Shown in pieces: positions 18,537-25,403 of a stretch of 64,000 bases of DNA. How positions within the stretch are numbered: the stretch's first letter is position 1; every line of letters begins with the position of its first letter. Origin of the DNA: Pelagibius marinus (GTDB lineage Bacteria; Pseudomonadota; Alphaproteobacteria; Kiloniellales; Kiloniellaceae); NCBI RefSeq assembly GCF_014925385.1, contig NZ_JACSDK010000003.1, positions 310,001 through 374,000 of the forward strand, written 5' to 3'. The notes under the pieces were generated by a model that made no database searches, had not been told where the DNA came from, and was given only the letters and a program-made list of their open reading frames with translations. The position numbers and the translations under genes are program-made.

Positions 18537-19053
18537 GCGCGGGCCCAAGCTTCCGTTCTTCTCCTGCGCCGTCTCGGGCGGGCCCGGCCGGGCTTCTTCC
18601 CGAGGCGGCGCAACTTTCTTCGCGCTTCACCGCCGCGAACTTTCACGATTGGTCTTTTTTCGCCTCAACCGCAGGTTCGGGTTGATTTCCGACTCCGACC
18701 TGGCCTATACCCCGCCTCCCGGACGCACTCCCGCGCGCCGGACAACGCGAAACGGAAACCCGATGACCTTTATGGATCGTCACATAAGCCCCGACGAAAG
18801 GGCCAACACACACCGGGTCTAGAGCCCGCGGTTTCCGCGCGACTCCTGCCCCGGCGACAACGCAAGACGGAGGCAGGAACGAAATGAATTCAAGACAGAC
18901 ATAACGACGAACGGCATCCCTCGCGAGAGGATCAGGAGCCCTATTCGTTTGGTACTTGGCAGACCGCTCTATGGTCCGGGTTCTGTAGGCCCGGCCGGCG
19001 CGATCGGCGTTGGTAATGCGCCCTTCGTGTGTCGAGCAATAGGTACCTTAGCG
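18537..19053. other. Intergenic region before the tRNA pair
   Basis: Over 500 bases without a recognisable protein gene. A 19-codon ORF starts at 18763 after a GGAAA purine run, but nothing supports translation. The distal part (18951-19047) can fold into a branched RNA (separate entry). The promoter of the tRNA pair is presumably here; no -24/-12 consensus was found. Confidence 0.45.
18951..19047 (+). ncRNA. Possible structured RNA upstream of the tRNA pair
   Basis: Closing arms GGTAC (18951-18955) and GTACC (19043-19047) enclose two hairpins. One has CCGGG (18976-18980) with CCCGG (18990-18994), the other GGCGC (18997-19001) with GCGCC (19018-19022). This gives a possible three-way junction of about 97 bases ending 6 bases before the tRNA-Asp-like gene. 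In GC-rich DNA such pairings arise by chance, so this is only a candidate RNA; tRNA-mimicking Y RNAs near slipin genes make it worth noting. Confidence 0.25.
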
Positions 19054-19129
19054 GCCGAATTAGCTCAGCGGTGAGAGCACCGGATTGTCGATCCGGAGGT
19101 CGCGGGTTCGATTCCCGCATTCGGCGCCA
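19054..19129 (+). tRNA. tRNA-Asp (GTC)-like
   Basis: Complete cloverleaf with encoded CCA. Acceptor GCCGAAT pairs perfectly with ATTCGGC and the discriminator is G. The D-arm is GCTC/GAGC, and the anticodon arm is CCGGA/TCCGG with loop TTGTCGA (anticodon GTC at 19087-19089). The T-arm GCGGG/CCCGC has loop TTCGATT. The anticodon loop is unusual: positions 32 and 38 (T-A) can pair, position 37 is G, and position 38 is A instead of the C usual in tRNA-Asp. It directly abuts a second tRNA-like sequence and is followed by a slipin gene. Confidence 0.8.
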
Positions 19130-19205
19130 TGGATGTAGCTCAGAGGGTAAGAGCACTAGCTTTCAACGCTAGATGTCGCGGGTTCAACTCCCGCCATCAC
19201 ACTCA
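19130..19205 (+). tRNA. Degenerate tRNA-like sequence, anticodon TCA
   Basis: Starts at the base after the CCA of the previous tRNA. The D-arm (GCTC/GAGC), anticodon arm (CTAGC/GCTAG, loop TTTCAAC) and T-arm (GCGGG/CCCGC, loop TTCAACT) are perfect. In the acceptor only the inner four pairs (GATG/CATC) form cleanly and the 3' end reads CTCA, not CCA. The anticodon (19163-19165) would be UCA, which reads UGA. It is too short in the variable arm to be a selenocysteine tRNA. It may be a tRNA pseudogene or a non-translational tRNA mimic. Confidence 0.6.
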
Positions 19206-19616
19206 GCCTTTAACGCTGATCCGAAACGAAGGATGCCGGAAGAGCGCCAGGCCCCGCCTCGCGCTGCTGCGTGCCGCTTCGGCGGTGCGCCGCGGCAACG
19301 GGCAGGGGCCAGGCGGCGGCCTGCTTCCGCGCGTCCCCACCGCGCTCTCCGACGCTGTCCACAAGAGATTCCGGCACGCCCTTTCCGCATTTTCGGGAAG
19401 GGAACCCCGGGGTCCCGCGCGGGCGGGGGAGGGAGAGGGCCGGGGCCGTCCAGCAGCCGGCGTCGGGGCTCTTCCGGTGTTCCTCAACCGATATTTTTTA
19501 GGAGCATTTCCCGGCCCCCGAAACGGGGCGAAAAACATAAACAAGCAATGCTCCGATCCCTCGCGGGACAACGACAGAAGAAGAGAAGAGAGAAAGAAGA
19601 AGAAAGGAACAGACCG
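19206..19616. other. Long leader between tRNA-like pair and slipin
   Basis: 411 bases with no supported protein gene. The frame of slipin is open upstream but lacks family similarity. Contents are GC-rich hairpins (for example around 19398-19414), the nested stem-loop at 19501-19554, and a purine tract at 19575-19610 that ends in the slipin ribosome site. Confidence 0.5.
19501..19554 (+). promoter_or_regulatory. Nested stem-loop in slipin leader
   Basis: GGAGCATT (19501-19508) pairs with AATGCTCC (19547-19554). Inside it CCCCG (19516-19520) and CGGGG (19524-19528) form a tight hairpin with an AAA loop. The perfect 8-bp outer stem 62 bases before the start codon suggests a structured RNA leader or processing site. 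No T-tract follows the outer stem, so it is not a simple terminator. Confidence 0.45.
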
Positions 19617-20744
19617 ATGGTTTTCAAGACCGAGAAGATCGCGGACTACGAGCTCGGTCTCCTCTACCGGGACCGGGCCTTCCAGAAGGTGCTGGCGCCG
19701 GGCGTGTACCGCTTCCTGCCGGGCCGGGCGGAGATCGAGGTCGTGAAGCTCGACCTGCGGGCCCTGCCGGTTCGCGACGCGGCCCTGGCGGCGCTCTACC
19801 TGACCCACCCCCGGGTGGTCGAGGAGCACTTCCTCGTCGCCGACATGGGGGATGGCGATCTGGGCATCGTCTATGCCGACGGCAAGCTGGCGGGCCTGGT
19901 GGCGCCGCGTAGCGTGGCGTTCTACGCCAAGGCGCTGCGGCAGGTGAAGCTGGAGGTGGTCGACGCGGCCGCCGCTTTCGAGCTGCCGGAGCGGCTGGTC
20001 GGCCCTTTGGCGCGGCTGGGCGCGAAGGACCTGGTGGCGGTGGTTGAGGTGGTCTCCGACCACGTCGGTCTGCTCTACCTGGACGGCGTGCTGCAGAAGC
20101 AGCTGAAGCCGGGCCGCTACGCCTTCGTGAAGGCGTTGCACCGGATCGACGTGGCCTCCTTCGATCTGCGGCTGCAGACCCTGGAGGTGACCGGCCAGGA
20201 GTTGCTGACCAAGGACCGGGTCGGCCTGCGTGCCAACCTGACCGCCGTCTTCCGGATCGTCGATCCGCTGAAGGCGGTCGCCCTGACCAGCGACCTGAAG
20301 GACTTCCTTTACAAGGAGCTTCAGTTCGCGCTGCGGCAGGTCATCGGCACCCGGACCCTGGAGCAGGTGCTCGGCGACAAGCTGGGCATCAACCAGGCGA
20401 TCGAGGCGCTGGTGCTGCCCAAGCTGGGTGACGCGGGCCTTGCGGTACCCTCCGTCGGTGTGAAGGACATCATCCTGCCCGGAGACGTGCGGGAGCTGAT
20501 GAACCGGGTCATCGAGGCGGAGAAGACCGCCCAGGCCAACGTCATCAAGCGGCGTGAGGAGACCGCGGCCACGCGGTCCCTGCTGAACACCGCCAAGCTG
20601 ATGGAGGACAACCCCATCCTCCTGCGGCTGAAGGAGCTCGAGGCGCTTGAGAAGGTGTCGGAGAAGTTCGGCAACGTCGTCGTGACCAACGGTATCGACG
20701 GCGTTCTAGAGGATCTGGTGCGGATCCGGCCCAAGCGTGCGTAA
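19617..20744 (+). CDS. Slipin (SPFH/band 7) family protein
   Basis: 375 residues. The C-terminal two thirds form an SPFH/band-7 domain of slipin type: DLRLQTLEVTGQELLTKDRV, RANLTAVFRIVDPLKAV, then YKELQFALRQVIGTRTLEQVLGDK. It ends with a helical IEAEKTAQANVIKRREETAATRS stretch (residues about 300-323). The N-terminal 190 residues contain two repeat-like modules (GLLYRDRAFQKVLAPGVYRF and GLLYLDGVLQKQLKPGRYAF). There is no N-terminal membrane anchor. Slipins of this kind occur in RtcR/RtcB-type RNA-repair operons; no rtc gene is in the window, but two tRNA-like sequences lie upstream. AAAGGA precedes the ATG. Confidence 0.85.
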   Translation: MVFKTEKIADYELGLLYRDRAFQKVLAPGVYRFLPGRAEIEVVKLDLRALPVRDAALAALYLTHPRVVEEHFLVADMGDGDLGIVYADGKLAGLVAPRSVAFYAKALRQVKLEVVDAAAAFELPERLVGPLARLGAKDLVAVVEVVSDHVGLLYLDGVLQKQLKPGRYAFVKALHRIDVASFDLRLQTLEVTGQELLTKDRVGLRANLTAVFRIVDPLKAVALTSDLKDFLYKELQFALRQVIGTRTLEQVLGDKLGINQAIEALVLPKLGDAGLAVPSVGVKDIILPGDVRELMNRVIEAEKTAQANVIKRREETAATRSLLNTAKLMEDNPILLRLKELEALEKVSEKFGNVVVTNGIDGVLEDLVRIRPKRA

Positions 20745-20778
20745 GCACGCGAAGGCCGGCTGAGCCCGGACTGCCGGC

Positions 20779-20824
20779 GGGGCCGGACCCATCGAACGAA
20801 CGGTGGGTCCGGCCCCGTTTTTTT
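20779..20824 (+). terminator. Rho-independent terminator of slipin
   Basis: A 13-bp stem, GGGGCCGGACCCA with TGGGTCCGGCCCC, followed by G and seven T residues. It is 35 bases after the slipin stop. Confidence 0.95.
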
Positions 20825-22619: not shown

Positions 22620-22892
22620 ATGACACAGGTTCTCAAGCTCAAGTCGGCTGAGTCGATCAGAGAGCTTATAACGCGCTCTCCAGTCCTCTTTATCCACGAA
22701 AATGAAACCCCTGAAGATACCCAGGCAAAACAACTACTGTTCCAAGAATTTGGCTCAGCTATGTCGGTAGTGTCGCGCCAAAGCACAGGTGAGGATGAGA
22801 TAGTCCCGGAGTTAGTAGCATCTGGAACCAGCTACTATGGACTAGATGGCATAAGAAGATTTGTCGAATACATCCGTAACCTGAGAGATTGA
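22620..22892 (+). CDS. Small protein, possibly thioredoxin-like fold
   Basis: 90 residues, AT-rich codon use. After an N-terminal helix (SAESIRELITRS) comes a hydrophobic strand (PVLFIHEN). The C-terminal half has DEIVPELVASGTSYYGLDGI, resembling the cis-proline strand and final helix of glutaredoxin-like folds. No CxxC or other cysteine is present, so it would not be a redox enzyme. GGGGAAGAAAG precedes the ATG. It is first in a same-strand run of four island genes. Fold assignment is inference. Confidence 0.6.
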   Translation: MTQVLKLKSAESIRELITRSPVLFIHENETPEDTQAKQLLFQEFGSAMSVVSRQSTGEDEIVPELVASGTSYYGLDGIRRFVEYIRNLRD

Positions 22893-22991
22893 TGCTGGCG
22901 CATACAATTTTGTGGTAGGAAAGTTTTCGACTCTTTCAATCTAATGTAGGATGGCCACCTTTAGCGTGGCCCAATGTTCCGCCGATGCATT

Positions 22992-23017
22992 GGCCGCGCT
23001 AGAGCGCGGCCATTTTT
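22992..23017 (+). terminator. Terminator or attenuator inside the island operon
   Basis: GGCCGCGC (22992-22999) pairs with GCGCGGCC (23004-23011) around TAGA and is followed by ATTTTT. It ends 11 bases before the ATG of the next gene, so it may end the first gene's transcript or attenuate expression of the next. Its presence argues against the ATG at 22951 as the start of that gene. Confidence 0.75.
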
Positions 23018-23028
23018 GTGAGGTCGGC

Positions 23029-24393
23029 ATGACTTTGCCGGACAAGGTTCGTGTATTGGTTACTGGACATACCGGGCTATACAAGCGCGGTGTCTTAGAC
23101 CGATTCTGCAAGTTTCTGGGTACTGAACTGCCGAACCGAACTGCTGCCCATTACTGTGTCGAGGACTACATCGACGACATGGGCTTGTTCATGACCTTTT
23201 CATTAGCTGCACAACAAGAGATTTGGCGCAAAGCTGTCGGAAAGGCTCTTAGCGCATGGCAAAAGGCCAATCCAGCGCCTGACTACACCTTTTTTTCTCT
23301 TCATCTGACCTTTCATTGGCATAGCCATGTCTTCTCACCAATGTCGTGGAGGGTCCCAAAGGATACCGGCGATTTTGATGAAGAGACCTGCCTGGAAGAT
23401 TCATTCATGAGGTACATCCATGGTGTGTACAAGCCACATTATTGCATAAATCTGATCGACGATATCCAAGCCGTTCAAAGTAGAATCAAGCATCATCATT
23501 TCCGGCTTCGTGAGCTCTTAAGCTGGCGCGACATCGAAGTGATGATGACCGACTTGGCGGCGAAGCTGGTTGTTCCAGCAGAGTACACGCATGGCGATCA
23601 ACCAAGTTTTCAATTTGAACGAAGCCCTGTTATTCCCATTCGCCATCCTCCGAAGATGCTAGCGCGATATCTCTTTGAACCTGAAGTTCCACGGATCTAT
23701 GCCTCCTTTCCGATAGGATCTCCACGTCGCCTGGAGGATTCTTCAGAGCGGAGTAGAGCGATGGCCGAAATAGATGACTTTCGGAACACACTCCACAGCT
23801 CTTATTGCGTTTTTGATCCCTTGACGATCGACGAACTGCCTCTTCGAGATTTGCTAAGACGGCATCAACAGAGTGCTGCCGCGAAAGTGGAACTCACTGA
23901 GTCCGATCAATGGCCAATACCGGGGCTACAGACGTTGTGTGGAGAGGACCGTAGCAAACATGAGATGAGCAAGGATGAACTCGTTGAGGTGGCTGGTCCT
24001 ATGTCCCGAGGTGCGAAGAGCGAGTTAGCTCGACAAGTGGAGGGACGCGACTTTCGATTAATTGATCAATCAGATTGTGTGGTCGTCTACCGGCCAACAT
24101 ACAACACAAAAGCCTGGGGTGAGGAGCCATGGAAGTGGAGTACGGGTACTTACCATGAGGCAATGCGAGCGCGCGAGACTGGTAAGCAGCTCTTCGTTAT
24201 TCGCGACCCCGCGTGTGACAACGAACTGACAGCACCAAACATAGGTATTGAGTTGACGCCGAGTCAGGTTTTTGAAGGCCAGCCGAACTTGAACGACCCA
24301 GAAAACAGAAAGAAGGTGCTCACTCAATTGATGGAAGAGTTGGATAGGCGCAGGGAAACGATGATTTCACGCAGGCGCTCAAGCGAATGCTAG
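23029..24393 (+). CDS. Degenerate P-loop plus deoxyribosyltransferase-like protein
   Basis: 454 residues. The N-terminus reads VRVLVTGHTGLYKRGVLDRF, a strand and glycine loop like a nucleoside-kinase P-loop but with Tyr and Arg where Walker A has Gly and Ser/Thr (GHTGLYKR at 13-20). The C-terminal part (about 220-400) resembles nucleoside 2-deoxyribosyltransferases: RIYASFPIGSP, DFRLIDQSDCVVVYRP, then STGTYHEAMRARETGKQ with Glu377 at the nucleophile position. Codon use is foreign to the core genes. It is followed 38 bases later by a membrane protein. A nucleotide-sensing or nucleotide-destroying role in a conflict system is inference. Confidence 0.55.
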   Translation: MTLPDKVRVLVTGHTGLYKRGVLDRFCKFLGTELPNRTAAHYCVEDYIDDMGLFMTFSLAAQQEIWRKAVGKALSAWQKANPAPDYTFFSLHLTFHWHSHVFSPMSWRVPKDTGDFDEETCLEDSFMRYIHGVYKPHYCINLIDDIQAVQSRIKHHHFRLRELLSWRDIEVMMTDLAAKLVVPAEYTHGDQPSFQFERSPVIPIRHPPKMLARYLFEPEVPRIYASFPIGSPRRLEDSSERSRAMAEIDDFRNTLHSSYCVFDPLTIDELPLRDLLRRHQQSAAAKVELTESDQWPIPGLQTLCGEDRSKHEMSKDELVEVAGPMSRGAKSELARQVEGRDFRLIDQSDCVVVYRPTYNTKAWGEEPWKWSTGTYHEAMRARETGKQLFVIRDPACDNELTAPNIGIELTPSQVFEGQPNLNDPENRKKVLTQLMEELDRRRETMISRRRSSEC

Positions 24394-24431
24394 GCGATCT
24401 GTTTTGGACGGATAAGGGGGAGGAGCATCCG

Positions 24432-24887
24432 ATGGTGGATACTTCAACTGATTATCAAGTGGTGGCACGGGATCTGGCGTGGAAGTGGTTTGAGTACCAT
24501 GCTGGTCAGCGTTTGGCTGTATTTCGCTTCTTCCTGCTCGTTATAGCCTTCATATCCGCAGGCTATGTGTCATCGTTGTTGGCGAAGGAGCACTTAGTTT
24601 CAGGGATTTTGGCATTAGTCCTCCTGGTTTCTACTTTTCTCTTTTATCGCCTCGATAGACGCAACCGTGCTTTGGTGAAGATCTCAGAGGCATATCTCAA
24701 GGATGATCAGGCGGAATTGGCTCAGCAACTTGGGAAGTCGGGGATCAAGCTCATTGAAATATCTGATGACGAAAAAGAATATCGTTCGCTCTGCTCGTTT
24801 AGCCAGATCAACAAGGCGATATTTGCTTTAGTCGGAGCCTTCGGCGCTGTTGGCCTGATCATATCTGCCCTTAAGTCTTGCTGGTAG
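24432..24887 (+). CDS. Small membrane protein of accessory island
   Basis: 151 residues. WKWFEYHAGQRLAVFRFFLLV leads into TM1 (about 28-50), closely followed by TM2 (about 54-75). A charged cytoplasmic segment (residues about 80-120) precedes a C-terminal TM3. The W-x-x-F-x-x-HAxQR entry into TM1 resembles membrane components found near phage-defence and nucleotidyltransferase loci, but I cannot name the family firmly. The ATG at 24432 has GGAGGAG upstream. It may be the effector or anchor for the preceding protein. Confidence 0.6.
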   Translation: MVDTSTDYQVVARDLAWKWFEYHAGQRLAVFRFFLLVIAFISAGYVSSLLAKEHLVSGILALVLLVSTFLFYRLDRRNRALVKISEAYLKDDQAELAQQLGKSGIKLIEISDDEKEYRSLCSFSQINKAIFALVGAFGAVGLIISALKSCW

Positions 24888-24899
24888 TCTATCCTGTCG

Positions 24900-25403
24900 G
24901 TGTGCGACAACGACTCTTGCTGGGCGAGTCAATTGAAAGAATGTGATCACACTAGCGTCGGTATCCTTGTCTGGAGAAATGACAAGTTGCTCCTTATTGA
25001 GCGGAAGAGGCCACCATATGGTATGGCGCCGCCGGCTGGCCATGTTGACGGTCATGGTTCCTATATGGACGCAGCGATTGCTGAACTCCGGGAAGAAGTA
25101 GGTCTCAGTTTGAGGCGGCTTTCGCTTATTGTTGAGGGAAGGAAAGACAATCCATGCAGAAGAGTGTCTGGTAATTGGCACTATTGGAAAGTCTACAGAG
25201 GTGAGGCGATTGGTAGAGTGAGTCCGAGTTCCATAGAAACTAAAAGCTATCGATGGGTCAGTGTGCCCCAGTTGCGTGAACTCGCTCATCGGACCCAGCA
25301 GTACTTGTCAGGGCAAGTCTCCGAGACCTCATGGCGACAGAATCCTGGACTAGAGCCTGTATGGTTGGATTGGCTGACAGAGATAGAAGTTTTAAAGTCA
25401 TAG
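24900..25403 (+). CDS. Nudix hydrolase
   Basis: 167 residues starting at a GTG 12 bases after the membrane-protein stop. The Nudix box is recognisable as G-x5-G-x7-AELREEVGL. The metal-binding glutamates of REUxEE are kept, but the upstream Glu is Gly and the Arg is Ala. An APPAGHVD strand precedes it. It should hydrolyse a nucleoside diphosphate linked to another group; the substrate is unknown. Co-location with a deoxyribosyltransferase-like protein points to nucleotide metabolism in the island. Confidence 0.75.
   Translation: MCDNDSCWASQLKECDHTSVGILVWRNDKLLLIERKRPPYGMAPPAGHVDGHGSYMDAAIAELREEVGLSLRRLSLIVEGRKDNPCRRVSGNWHYWKVYRGEAIGRVSPSSIETKSYRWVSVPQLRELAHRTQQYLSGQVSETSWRQNPGLEPVWLDWLTEIEVLKS

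What the first reader, a model, noticed from the sequence alone, without database searches (positions are those of the whole stretch)
18951..20744. Slipin gene led by a tRNA-Asp-like gene, a UCA-anticodon tRNA mimic and a structured leader
Sequence: two tRNA-like RNAs abut with no spacer. The first has a self-complementary anticodon loop. The second has perfect D, anticodon and T arms, a broken acceptor stem and CTCA in place of CCA. A 411-base structured leader then runs into a slipin gene ending in a strong terminator. Known: slipins belong to bacterial RNA-repair operons with RtcB/RtcR, Ro proteins and tRNA-mimicking Y RNAs. Inference: this may be a minimal tRNA-damage sensing unit in which sacrificial tRNA mimics act with slipin, without rtc genes in the window.
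Basis: partly seen in the sequence, partly recalled or inferred. Interest (0 to 1): 0.75.

Follow-up and report, generated by a model that had tools for sequence, protein, structure and literature searches.

The report
Fused tRNA-mimic pair beside slipin gene
Upstream of a soluble slipin-type protein gene, whose relatives sit among bacterial RNA-repair genes, lies a large conserved RNA that carries two fused tRNA look-alikes with ever-changing anticodons; it is probably the protein's RNA partner, a link already proposed in outline, and I could not find this form of it described.

Summary
Two fused tRNA-like RNAs (TLR1 19054-19129, TLR2 19132-19198) precede the slipin (19617-20744). In 58 related genomes the pair (at least 110 bits) occurs in exactly the 14 with this slipin and in none of the other 44. 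In 80 GTDB slipin loci, ARAGORN finds upstream tRNAs in 66 of 75 testable ones, against 2 of 69 downstream. Both cloverleaves covary strongly. TLR2 usually has a 4-bp acceptor (36 of 51); its "anticodon" takes 21 triplets in 43 seven-base loops, and TLR1 loops run from 2 to 15 bases, so the pair is not conserved for decoding. It lies in a larger RNA with 5' and 3' domains. Homologous slipins sit with rtcR, rtcB and rlaP; this genome has rtcB-rlaP elsewhere, without rtcR or rtcA. The protein lacks a membrane segment. Burroughs and Aravind 2016 (recalled, not held) already reported an SPFH-linked tRNA-like RNA, so I rate this a new variant of a known kind. A trans-acting RNA partner is favoured over a cis-regulatory leader; bait for anticodon nucleases is untested.

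The parts
18844..18878 (+). hairpin whose 3' arm overlaps the Shine-Dalgarno-like GGAGGCAGGA of a micro-ORF
   Evidence: 15 loci: 88.6% of 105 cells paired, against 31-54% when slid; covariation modest (2 of 7 pairs change on both sides, no more than in shuffles).
18884..18904 (+). micro-ORF MNSRQT*, a possible leader peptide
   Evidence: ATG to in-frame stop of 21, 24 or 27 nt in 15 of 16 alphaproteobacterial loci looked at (L054 lacks it); sequence otherwise variable.
18951..19047 (+). 5' structured domain: two hairpins within a closing GGTAC/GTACC helix
   Evidence: 16 alphaproteobacterial loci. Related domain in 30 loci (mostly Gamma, two Alpha, two cyanobacteria; chosen with a motif): 94.8% of 540 cells paired, 12 of 18 pairs with changes on both sides. 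The closing helix rests on the single-sequence fold and inspection only.
19054..19129 (+). TLR1, tRNA-like RNA 1 (Asp-GTC-like, 7-bp acceptor, GCCA end)
19132..19198 (+). TLR2, tRNA-like RNA 2 (UCA loop, 4-bp acceptor GATG/CATC)
19203..19219 (+). short hairpin TCAGCCTTTAACGCTGA directly after TLR2
   Evidence: columns 22-38: each of its 5 pairs is formed in 12 to 14 of 16 loci; a second such hairpin precedes it in L043.
19231..19483 (+). 3' structured domain closed by a long-range helix (19231-19252 with 19462-19483)
   Evidence: 95.8% of 284 cells paired, 5 of 18 pairs with changes on both sides, 16 loci.
19617..20744 (+). slipin/SPFH (Band 7) protein, 375 aa, no transmembrane segment, extra N-terminal beta modules
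20776..20819 (+). intrinsic terminator (19-pair stem, T tail)

Best explanation
The stretch 18951-19483 encodes a multi-domain structured RNA (5' domain, TLR1, TLR2, 3' domain), probably made on one transcript with the slipin gene. The RNA is most likely a trans-acting partner of the slipin, a soluble SPFH protein expected to assemble into a ring or cage, and the two act in RNA (tRNA) repair together with the RtcB ligase and RlaP nucleotidyltransferase encoded elsewhere in the genome. Shown: the RNA structure, its strict linkage to this slipin, the link of the family to rtc genes, and loops too variable to be kept for decoding. Inferred: that RNA and protein bind each other; that the conserved tRNA elbow (D and T arms) is what the protein or its clients grip; that the variable anticodon loops serve as bait or reference substrates for anticodon-loop nucleases and the ligase, as in an arms race.
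For: Linkage: pair at or above 110 bits in 14 of 14 genomes with the slipin and 0 of 44 without (Fisher p 1e-13, not corrected for kinship). GTDB loci: ARAGORN hit upstream in 66 of 75, downstream (either strand) in 2 of 69; R1 hit upstream in 75 of 75, weak ones included. Control: 0 of 15 distant SPFH loci have a tRNA in their short flanks. Structure: 97.7% of 1196 cells paired, 29 of 39 pairs with changes on both sides, covariation 0.647 against 0.190 shuffled; 5' domain; 3' helix. Loops: 21 triplets in 43 TLR2 seven-base loops while U33 is kept in 37 and A37 in 34; TLR1 loop 7 bases in only 16 of 51. Between two species with 96.9% identical slipin genes, TLR2's anticodon arm is 11 of 17 identical. 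Repair link: RtcB within the fetched flanks in 40 of 80 loci and RtcR in 8 (the eight RtcR matches are 52-70% identical); Photobacterium, Burkholderia and Citrobacter neighbourhoods; RtcB hits of 400-450 bits, a band set after seeing the list, in 12 of 14 slipin genomes against 3 of 44 others. In the Anabaena TrcR study a table of fold changes lists rtcB (77) and slipin alr0740 (42), beside a tRNA operon under the same repressor (PMC10272220, passages).
Against: No RNA-protein binding, transcript or phenotype was tested. The RNA lies in the 5' leader of the slipin gene, so a purely cis role fits the linkage equally well. Only 51 of 91 slipin loci score 100 bits or more for the pair; 35 score less, and L072 and L075 have no hit, so one or both mimics are often reduced. 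E. coli (L072) and Citrobacter (L075) show only a T-arm-like remnant by eye. G004, the closest relative (98% complete, 5 contigs), has RNA and slipin but no RtcB or RlaP hit; G007 (86% complete) lacks RtcB. The window's TLR1 has the best tRNA score in the genome and could in principle be charged.
Confidence: 0.5

Rival explanations
1. Cis-regulatory leader. The tRNA mimics and the two structured domains control slipin expression in cis, for example as an operator to which free slipin (or a tRNA-binding protein) binds, like the tRNA-like operator of thrS, or as a platform for RNase P cleavage. The upstream micro-ORF would add translational sensing.
For: In the 75 loci tested the RNA lies upstream of the slipin gene on the same strand; the consensus scan found no terminator between RNA and gene in the window; a hairpin plus micro-ORF precedes it in 15 of 16 loci. 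Precedents: T-box and thrS leaders (passage in PMC8394870).
Against: Two full cloverleaves with conserved elbows and some 500 nt of structure are much for an operator. Hypervariable anticodons fit a T-box or thrS type of codon-specific control badly.
Confidence: 0.3
2. Ordinary tRNA genes (Asp plus a decayed one) that lie next to a slipin by chance or as a remnant of an integration site.
For: TLR1 is called tRNA-Asp by ARAGORN and has the highest RF00005 score of the 49 hits in the genome.
Against: Linkage 14 of 14 against 0 of 44, covariation, loops of 2-15 bases in TLR1 across loci, another tRNA-Asp in the genome.
Confidence: 0.01
3. TLR2 (UCA) is a UGA-reading or selenocysteine tRNA.
For: Its anticodon is UCA.
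Against: UCA occurs in 1 of 43 seven-base TLR2 loops and the acceptor stem here has only 4 bp. The genome's two RF01852 hits above cut-off lie on tRNA-Ser genes.
Confidence: 0.01

Closest known systems
SPFH/Band-7 module with a cognate 'novel tRNA-like molecule' in RNA-repair systems (Burroughs and Aravind 2016, NAR 44:8525; recalled abstract, paper not held)
   Same: An SPFH protein beside RtcB-type repair genes and a linked tRNA-like RNA.
   Different: From recall I cannot tell whether a tandem pair, a short second acceptor, the 5' and 3' domains, the loop variability or the rtcR-less alphaproteobacterial form were described there.
Bacterial Ro60 (Rsr) with YrlA Y RNA in the rsr-yrlBA-rtcBA operon
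   Same: A ring-shaped scaffold protein plus an RNA with a tRNA-like domain in RNA-repair operons (passages).
   Different: No TROVE protein found in this genome; no Y RNA family reached the gathering score in the window. Y RNA mimics D, T and acceptor arms of one tRNA (passage); here two full cloverleaves.
RtcR-regulated rtcBA operon
   Same: Homologous slipins sit beside rtcR, rtcB and rlaP.
   Different: No RtcR or RtcA found in this genome, and a TGGCAC-type sigma-54 pattern on the + strand has no match before the RNA.
Eukaryotic vault (MVP plus vault RNA)
   Same: Soluble SPFH protein with extra beta modules before the SPFH domain and a long helix after it; MVP chains align at Z 9.8-12.0, two of them from model residue 4 onwards.
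   Different: About half the length; PHB, stomatin and HflK align better over the SPFH part, and unrelated ribosomal proteins reach Z about 10 on part of it. The N-terminal part alone matches SPFH strands only weakly (Z 6.2 at best). No assembly shown.
Anabaena TrcR regulon (trn tRNA operon, rtcB, slipin alr0740)
   Same: Slipin gene listed with rtcB and tRNAs in a genome said to lack RtcR (PMC10272220, passages).
   Different: I did not test whether alr0740 belongs to this slipin family or has the tRNA-like pair.

Membership tests
tRNA (decoding) | 7-bp acceptor stem and CCA end | tested here: not met
   TLR1 meets it in the window; TLR2 does not. TLR2 has 4 uninterrupted acceptor pairs in 36 of 51. 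TLR1 is followed by CCA in 30 of 51 strong pairs.
tRNA (decoding) | 7-base anticodon loop with a conserved isotype | tested here: not met
   TLR1 loop 7 bases in 16 of 51; TLR2 21 different triplets in 43.
SPFH / Band 7 (slipin) | Band 7 domain | tested here: met
   PF01145 E 2.2e-27; 46 of 46 homologues.
Stomatin-type slipin | N-terminal hydrophobic membrane segment | tested here: not met
   0 of 46 homologues reach mean hydropathy 1.6 over 19 residues.
SPFH plus tRNA-like RNA of RNA-repair systems (2016, recalled) | tRNA-like RNA linked to the SPFH gene | tested here: met
SPFH plus tRNA-like RNA of RNA-repair systems (2016, recalled) | RtcB-type ligase in the system | tested here: met
   Family: near the slipin in 40 of 80 loci. 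Own genome: RtcB plus RlaP, not linked to the slipin. Exceptions G004 and G007.
RtcR-regulated operon | RtcR and a sigma-54 promoter | tested here: not met
   No RtcR match in the genome (98% complete); no TGGCAC-type match before the RNA. RtcR present in 8 of 80 homologous loci.
Ro60/Y RNA | TROVE protein | tested here: not met
   No match in the genome.
Vault (MVP) | MVP repeats plus shoulder domain assembling into a barrel | tested here: inconclusive
   MVP_shoulder hit in 1 of 46 at E 0.023; fold matches Z 9.8-12.0; the N-terminal part alone has no strong match.
T-box / thrS-type leader | tRNA- or synthetase-dependent control of the downstream gene | not testable with these tools
   No expression data. 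No T-box family reached the gathering score in the window.

The most novel reading that the evidence does not exclude
A bacterial vault-like ribonucleoprotein: a cytosolic SPFH cage is loaded with a large RNA whose two tRNA mimics display rapidly evolving anticodon loops as bait for anticodon nucleases. Cleaved mimics signal or are re-sealed by RtcB, and in RtcR-less alphaproteobacteria a 6-8-codon leader peptide couples the RNA's synthesis to failing translation.
Probability: 0.12. Interest if true: 0.9.

Novelty: new variant of a known kind. Interest (0 to 1): 0.6.

Why it matters
It gives a concrete anatomy for the SPFH-linked tRNA-like RNA: two fused cloverleaves within a larger conserved RNA that had only generic tRNA matches in Rfam 15 at gathering scores. 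It ties this RNA to a soluble SPFH protein with some likeness to vaults, and the variable anticodons make the decoy idea directly testable. It also warns that ARAGORN reports such elements as tRNA genes of many isotypes.

Tried and rejected
Ordinary tRNAs, chance adjacency and tRNA-Sec were rejected.

A sigma-54/RtcR promoter in the window was looked for and not found; the sigma-54 pattern was one regular expression on one strand without a chance control. No sigma-70-type promoter reached the scan's threshold either, so the promoter is unknown.

A strict pattern for the micro-ORF matched no locus, the pattern being too narrow; the ORFs were found by script instead. The shuffle test (15 of 15, mean 0.36) was run only on loci already chosen for having the ORF, so it is biased. 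The hairpin statistics are no better than shuffles on two of five measures.

The 5' domain: a short motif occurs within 190 nt before the hit in 45 of 54 loci against a mean of 10 in plain shuffles. Loci for the alignment were then picked with a longer motif, which 41 of 50 loci met and nine, the window's own form among them, did not; 30 were used in A7. So the sequence conservation of its second helix is partly by choice; the covariation is less affected. Alignment A6 mixed window-type and other forms and misaligned the second hairpin; I used A7 and A4 instead.

The N-terminal 142 residues alone gave no strong fold match; the vault comparison rests on the full model, whose best matches are stomatin, PHB and HflK.

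Rows dropped before counts: L120:3349-3499 (tRNA array) from the 52 strongest R1 hits; L054 lacks the micro-ORF and is the miss in 15 of 16; five of 80 loci had under 1.3 kb upstream; L098, L113 and L151 have almost no upstream sequence and no hit; in G011 only a 45-residue slipin remnant matched, so it is counted as without the slipin. Six of the 80 GTDB loci (L076-L081) are the same contigs, by length, as loci of the 58 genomes. R1 was built from 31 pairs of the loci it was then run on, so ARAGORN is the independent test. R1 hits under about 100 bits include single tRNAs and true tRNA arrays; one search used stricter filters because of the number of genomes.

In the listings and passages that I saw, searches showed no paper on an SPFH/slipin protein with a tRNA-like RNA; the 2016 paper that I recall is not held.
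Full report
What is there. The window holds two tRNA-like RNAs back to back (TLR1 19054-19129 and TLR2 19132-19198), a structured leader and a slipin/SPFH gene (19617-20744) with a terminator. The genome has 49 RF00005 hits, among them another tRNA-Asp(GTC) on contig 16, so TLR1 is not the cell's only Asp tRNA. Named contigs with the same lengths as those of two genomes of the same family (Pelagibius sp. Alg239-R121, 39,828 bases; Denitrobaculum tricleocarpae, 138,188 bases) place the window in their family of alphaproteobacteria.

Is the link real? A search with the slipin over 58 related genomes found 14 with a clear ortholog. A covariance model of the pair (R1, built from 31 pairs) found its best hits, 110.7 to 143.6 bits, in exactly those 14 genomes, upstream of the slipin; the next best hit in any genome was 96.9 bits. 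So the counts are 14 of 14 against 0 of 44. G011 keeps only a 45-residue remnant of the slipin and has no strong hit. Fifteen loci of distant SPFH genes have none in their short flanks. Over 91 slipin loci, 51 have a hit of 100 bits or more, 35 only weaker ones, and five none, of which three lack upstream sequence: the full pair is common but not universal.

What kind of RNA? In 31 aligned pairs both cloverleaves are supported: 97.7% of 1196 cells paired, 29 of 39 pairs with changes on both sides, covariation 0.647 against 0.190 shuffled and at most 0.158 when slid. TLR2's acceptor has 4 uninterrupted pairs in 36 of 51 strong pairs, 0 or 3 in 7, and 5 to 7 in 8. Mean column entropy for TLR1 and TLR2 is 0.13 and 0.05 bits in D stems, 0.77 and 0.50 in T stems, 1.27 and 1.22 in anticodon stems, 1.78 and 1.39 in acceptors. 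Among 51 strong pairs the TLR2 loop has 7 bases in 43, with U33 in 37 and A37 in 34, yet 21 different triplets; the TLR1 loop has 7 bases in only 16 and ranges from 2 to 15. Between the window and G004, whose slipin genes are 96.9% identical, TLR2's anticodon arm is 11 of 17 identical. These look like tRNA mimics with a preserved elbow and a freely changing tip rather than decoding tRNAs.

The RNA is larger than the pair. Upstream of TLR1 lies a 5' domain of a hairpin followed by a GGYRCGC..GCGUAUGCC-type helix. Over 30 loci picked with a motif it has 94.8% of 540 cells paired and 12 of 18 pairs with changes on both sides; the window's relatives have a longer second hairpin. Downstream, in 16 loci, a long-range helix closes a 3' domain (95.8% of 284 cells, 5 of 18 pairs with changes on both sides). 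At gathering scores Rfam 15 reports only 'tRNA' for the window and for the leader regions of the 18 loci scanned. Further upstream, 15 of 16 alphaproteobacterial loci looked at have a hairpin that overlaps a Shine-Dalgarno-like stretch and a 6-8-codon ORF, ending in Thr-stop in 14 and Ala-stop in one; lengths of 21, 24 and 27 nt all keep frame. This is suggestive only.

The protein. The slipin lacks a hydrophobic segment (0 of 46 homologues). The model (mean pLDDT 84, pTM 0.58) shows extra five-stranded beta modules before the SPFH domain and a long helix after it. PDB matches are stomatin, PHB and HflK over residues 133-359, and MVP chains at Z 9.8-12.0, two of them aligned from residue 4; ribosomal proteins reach Z about 10 over some 92 residues. 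The N-terminal part alone matches SPFH strands weakly (Z at most 6.2). A soluble SPFH particle resembling a small vault is plausible but not shown.

The repair link. Homologous slipins have these neighbours, with families checked: divergent rtcR and downstream rtcB in Photobacterium; rtcR, rtcB and rlaP in Burkholderia; annotated rtcR, and rlaP, in Citrobacter. In the 80 loci RtcB lies nearby in 40, RtcR in 8 and RlaP in 4. TGGCAC-type patterns precede the RNA in several rtcR-linked loci and not in the window. This genome has RtcB followed by RlaP on contig 1, but no RtcR, RtcA or TROVE match. Across the 58 genomes RtcB is found in 12 of 14 with the slipin and 16 of 44 without; RtcB hits of 400-450 bits, a band chosen after seeing the list, in 12 of 14 against 3 of 44 (G040's hit with stop codons not counted). 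RlaP is found in 9 of 14 against 3 of 44. The exceptions matter: G004, the closest relative, has RNA and slipin but no RtcB or RlaP hit. In Anabaena, TrcR represses a 26-gene tRNA operon and rtcB, a table of the same study lists slipin alr0740, and no RtcR homologue could be identified there (PMC10272220, passages). Six of 80 loci have five or more tRNA calls.

Mechanism. Most likely the RNA works in trans as the slipin's partner in an RNA-repair particle, as Y RNA does with Ro60 (passages). The D/T elbow would be the grip and the changing anticodon loop the working end, either bait for anticodon nucleases or a mimic of repair substrates. Only linkage and structure are shown. The main rival is a cis-acting leader that controls the slipin; nothing here excludes it. 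E. coli and Citrobacter homologues keep only a T-arm-like remnant by eye, so the full pair is not needed by every member.

Known or new. From recall, the abstract of Burroughs and Aravind 2016 names SPFH/Band-7 modules with a 'novel tRNA-like molecule'; the paper is not held. Searches showed no held paper on such a link in their listings or in the passages opened. PMC13086221 notes an SPFH gene in the P. aeruginosa rtc locus (passage). I therefore call this a new variant of a known kind: the tandem fused pair, the short second acceptor, the conserved 5' domain, the variable loops and the rtcR-less form with a micro-ORF are the parts I could not find described.

Noticed in passing
window 18844-18904: Hairpin with a Shine-Dalgarno-like arm and a micro-ORF (MNSRQT*) whose stop lies 149 nt before TLR1; such ORFs occur in 15 of 16 alphaproteobacterial loci looked at, ending in Thr-stop in 14 and Ala-stop in one. 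Possible translation-sensing leader peptide.
   Followed up: partly
L093, L097, L101, L120, L150, L154: Loci with 5 to 13 tRNA calls, several of them tRNA arrays next to the slipin, reminiscent of the TrcR-controlled trn operon of Anabaena.
   Followed up: no
L145:4609-4821: Three tRNA-like RNAs in tandem instead of two upstream of a Colwellia slipin.
   Followed up: no
L075:5720-5830 and L072:5631-5975: Enterobacterial homologues keep, by eye, something like the 5'-domain motif but only a T-arm-like remnant of the tRNA-like pair.
   Followed up: partly
window 22620-25403: Four ORFs downstream: 90 aa and 480 aa without Pfam match, a 166-aa protein with a sub-threshold 8xMP match and a NUDIX protein.
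   Followed up: no
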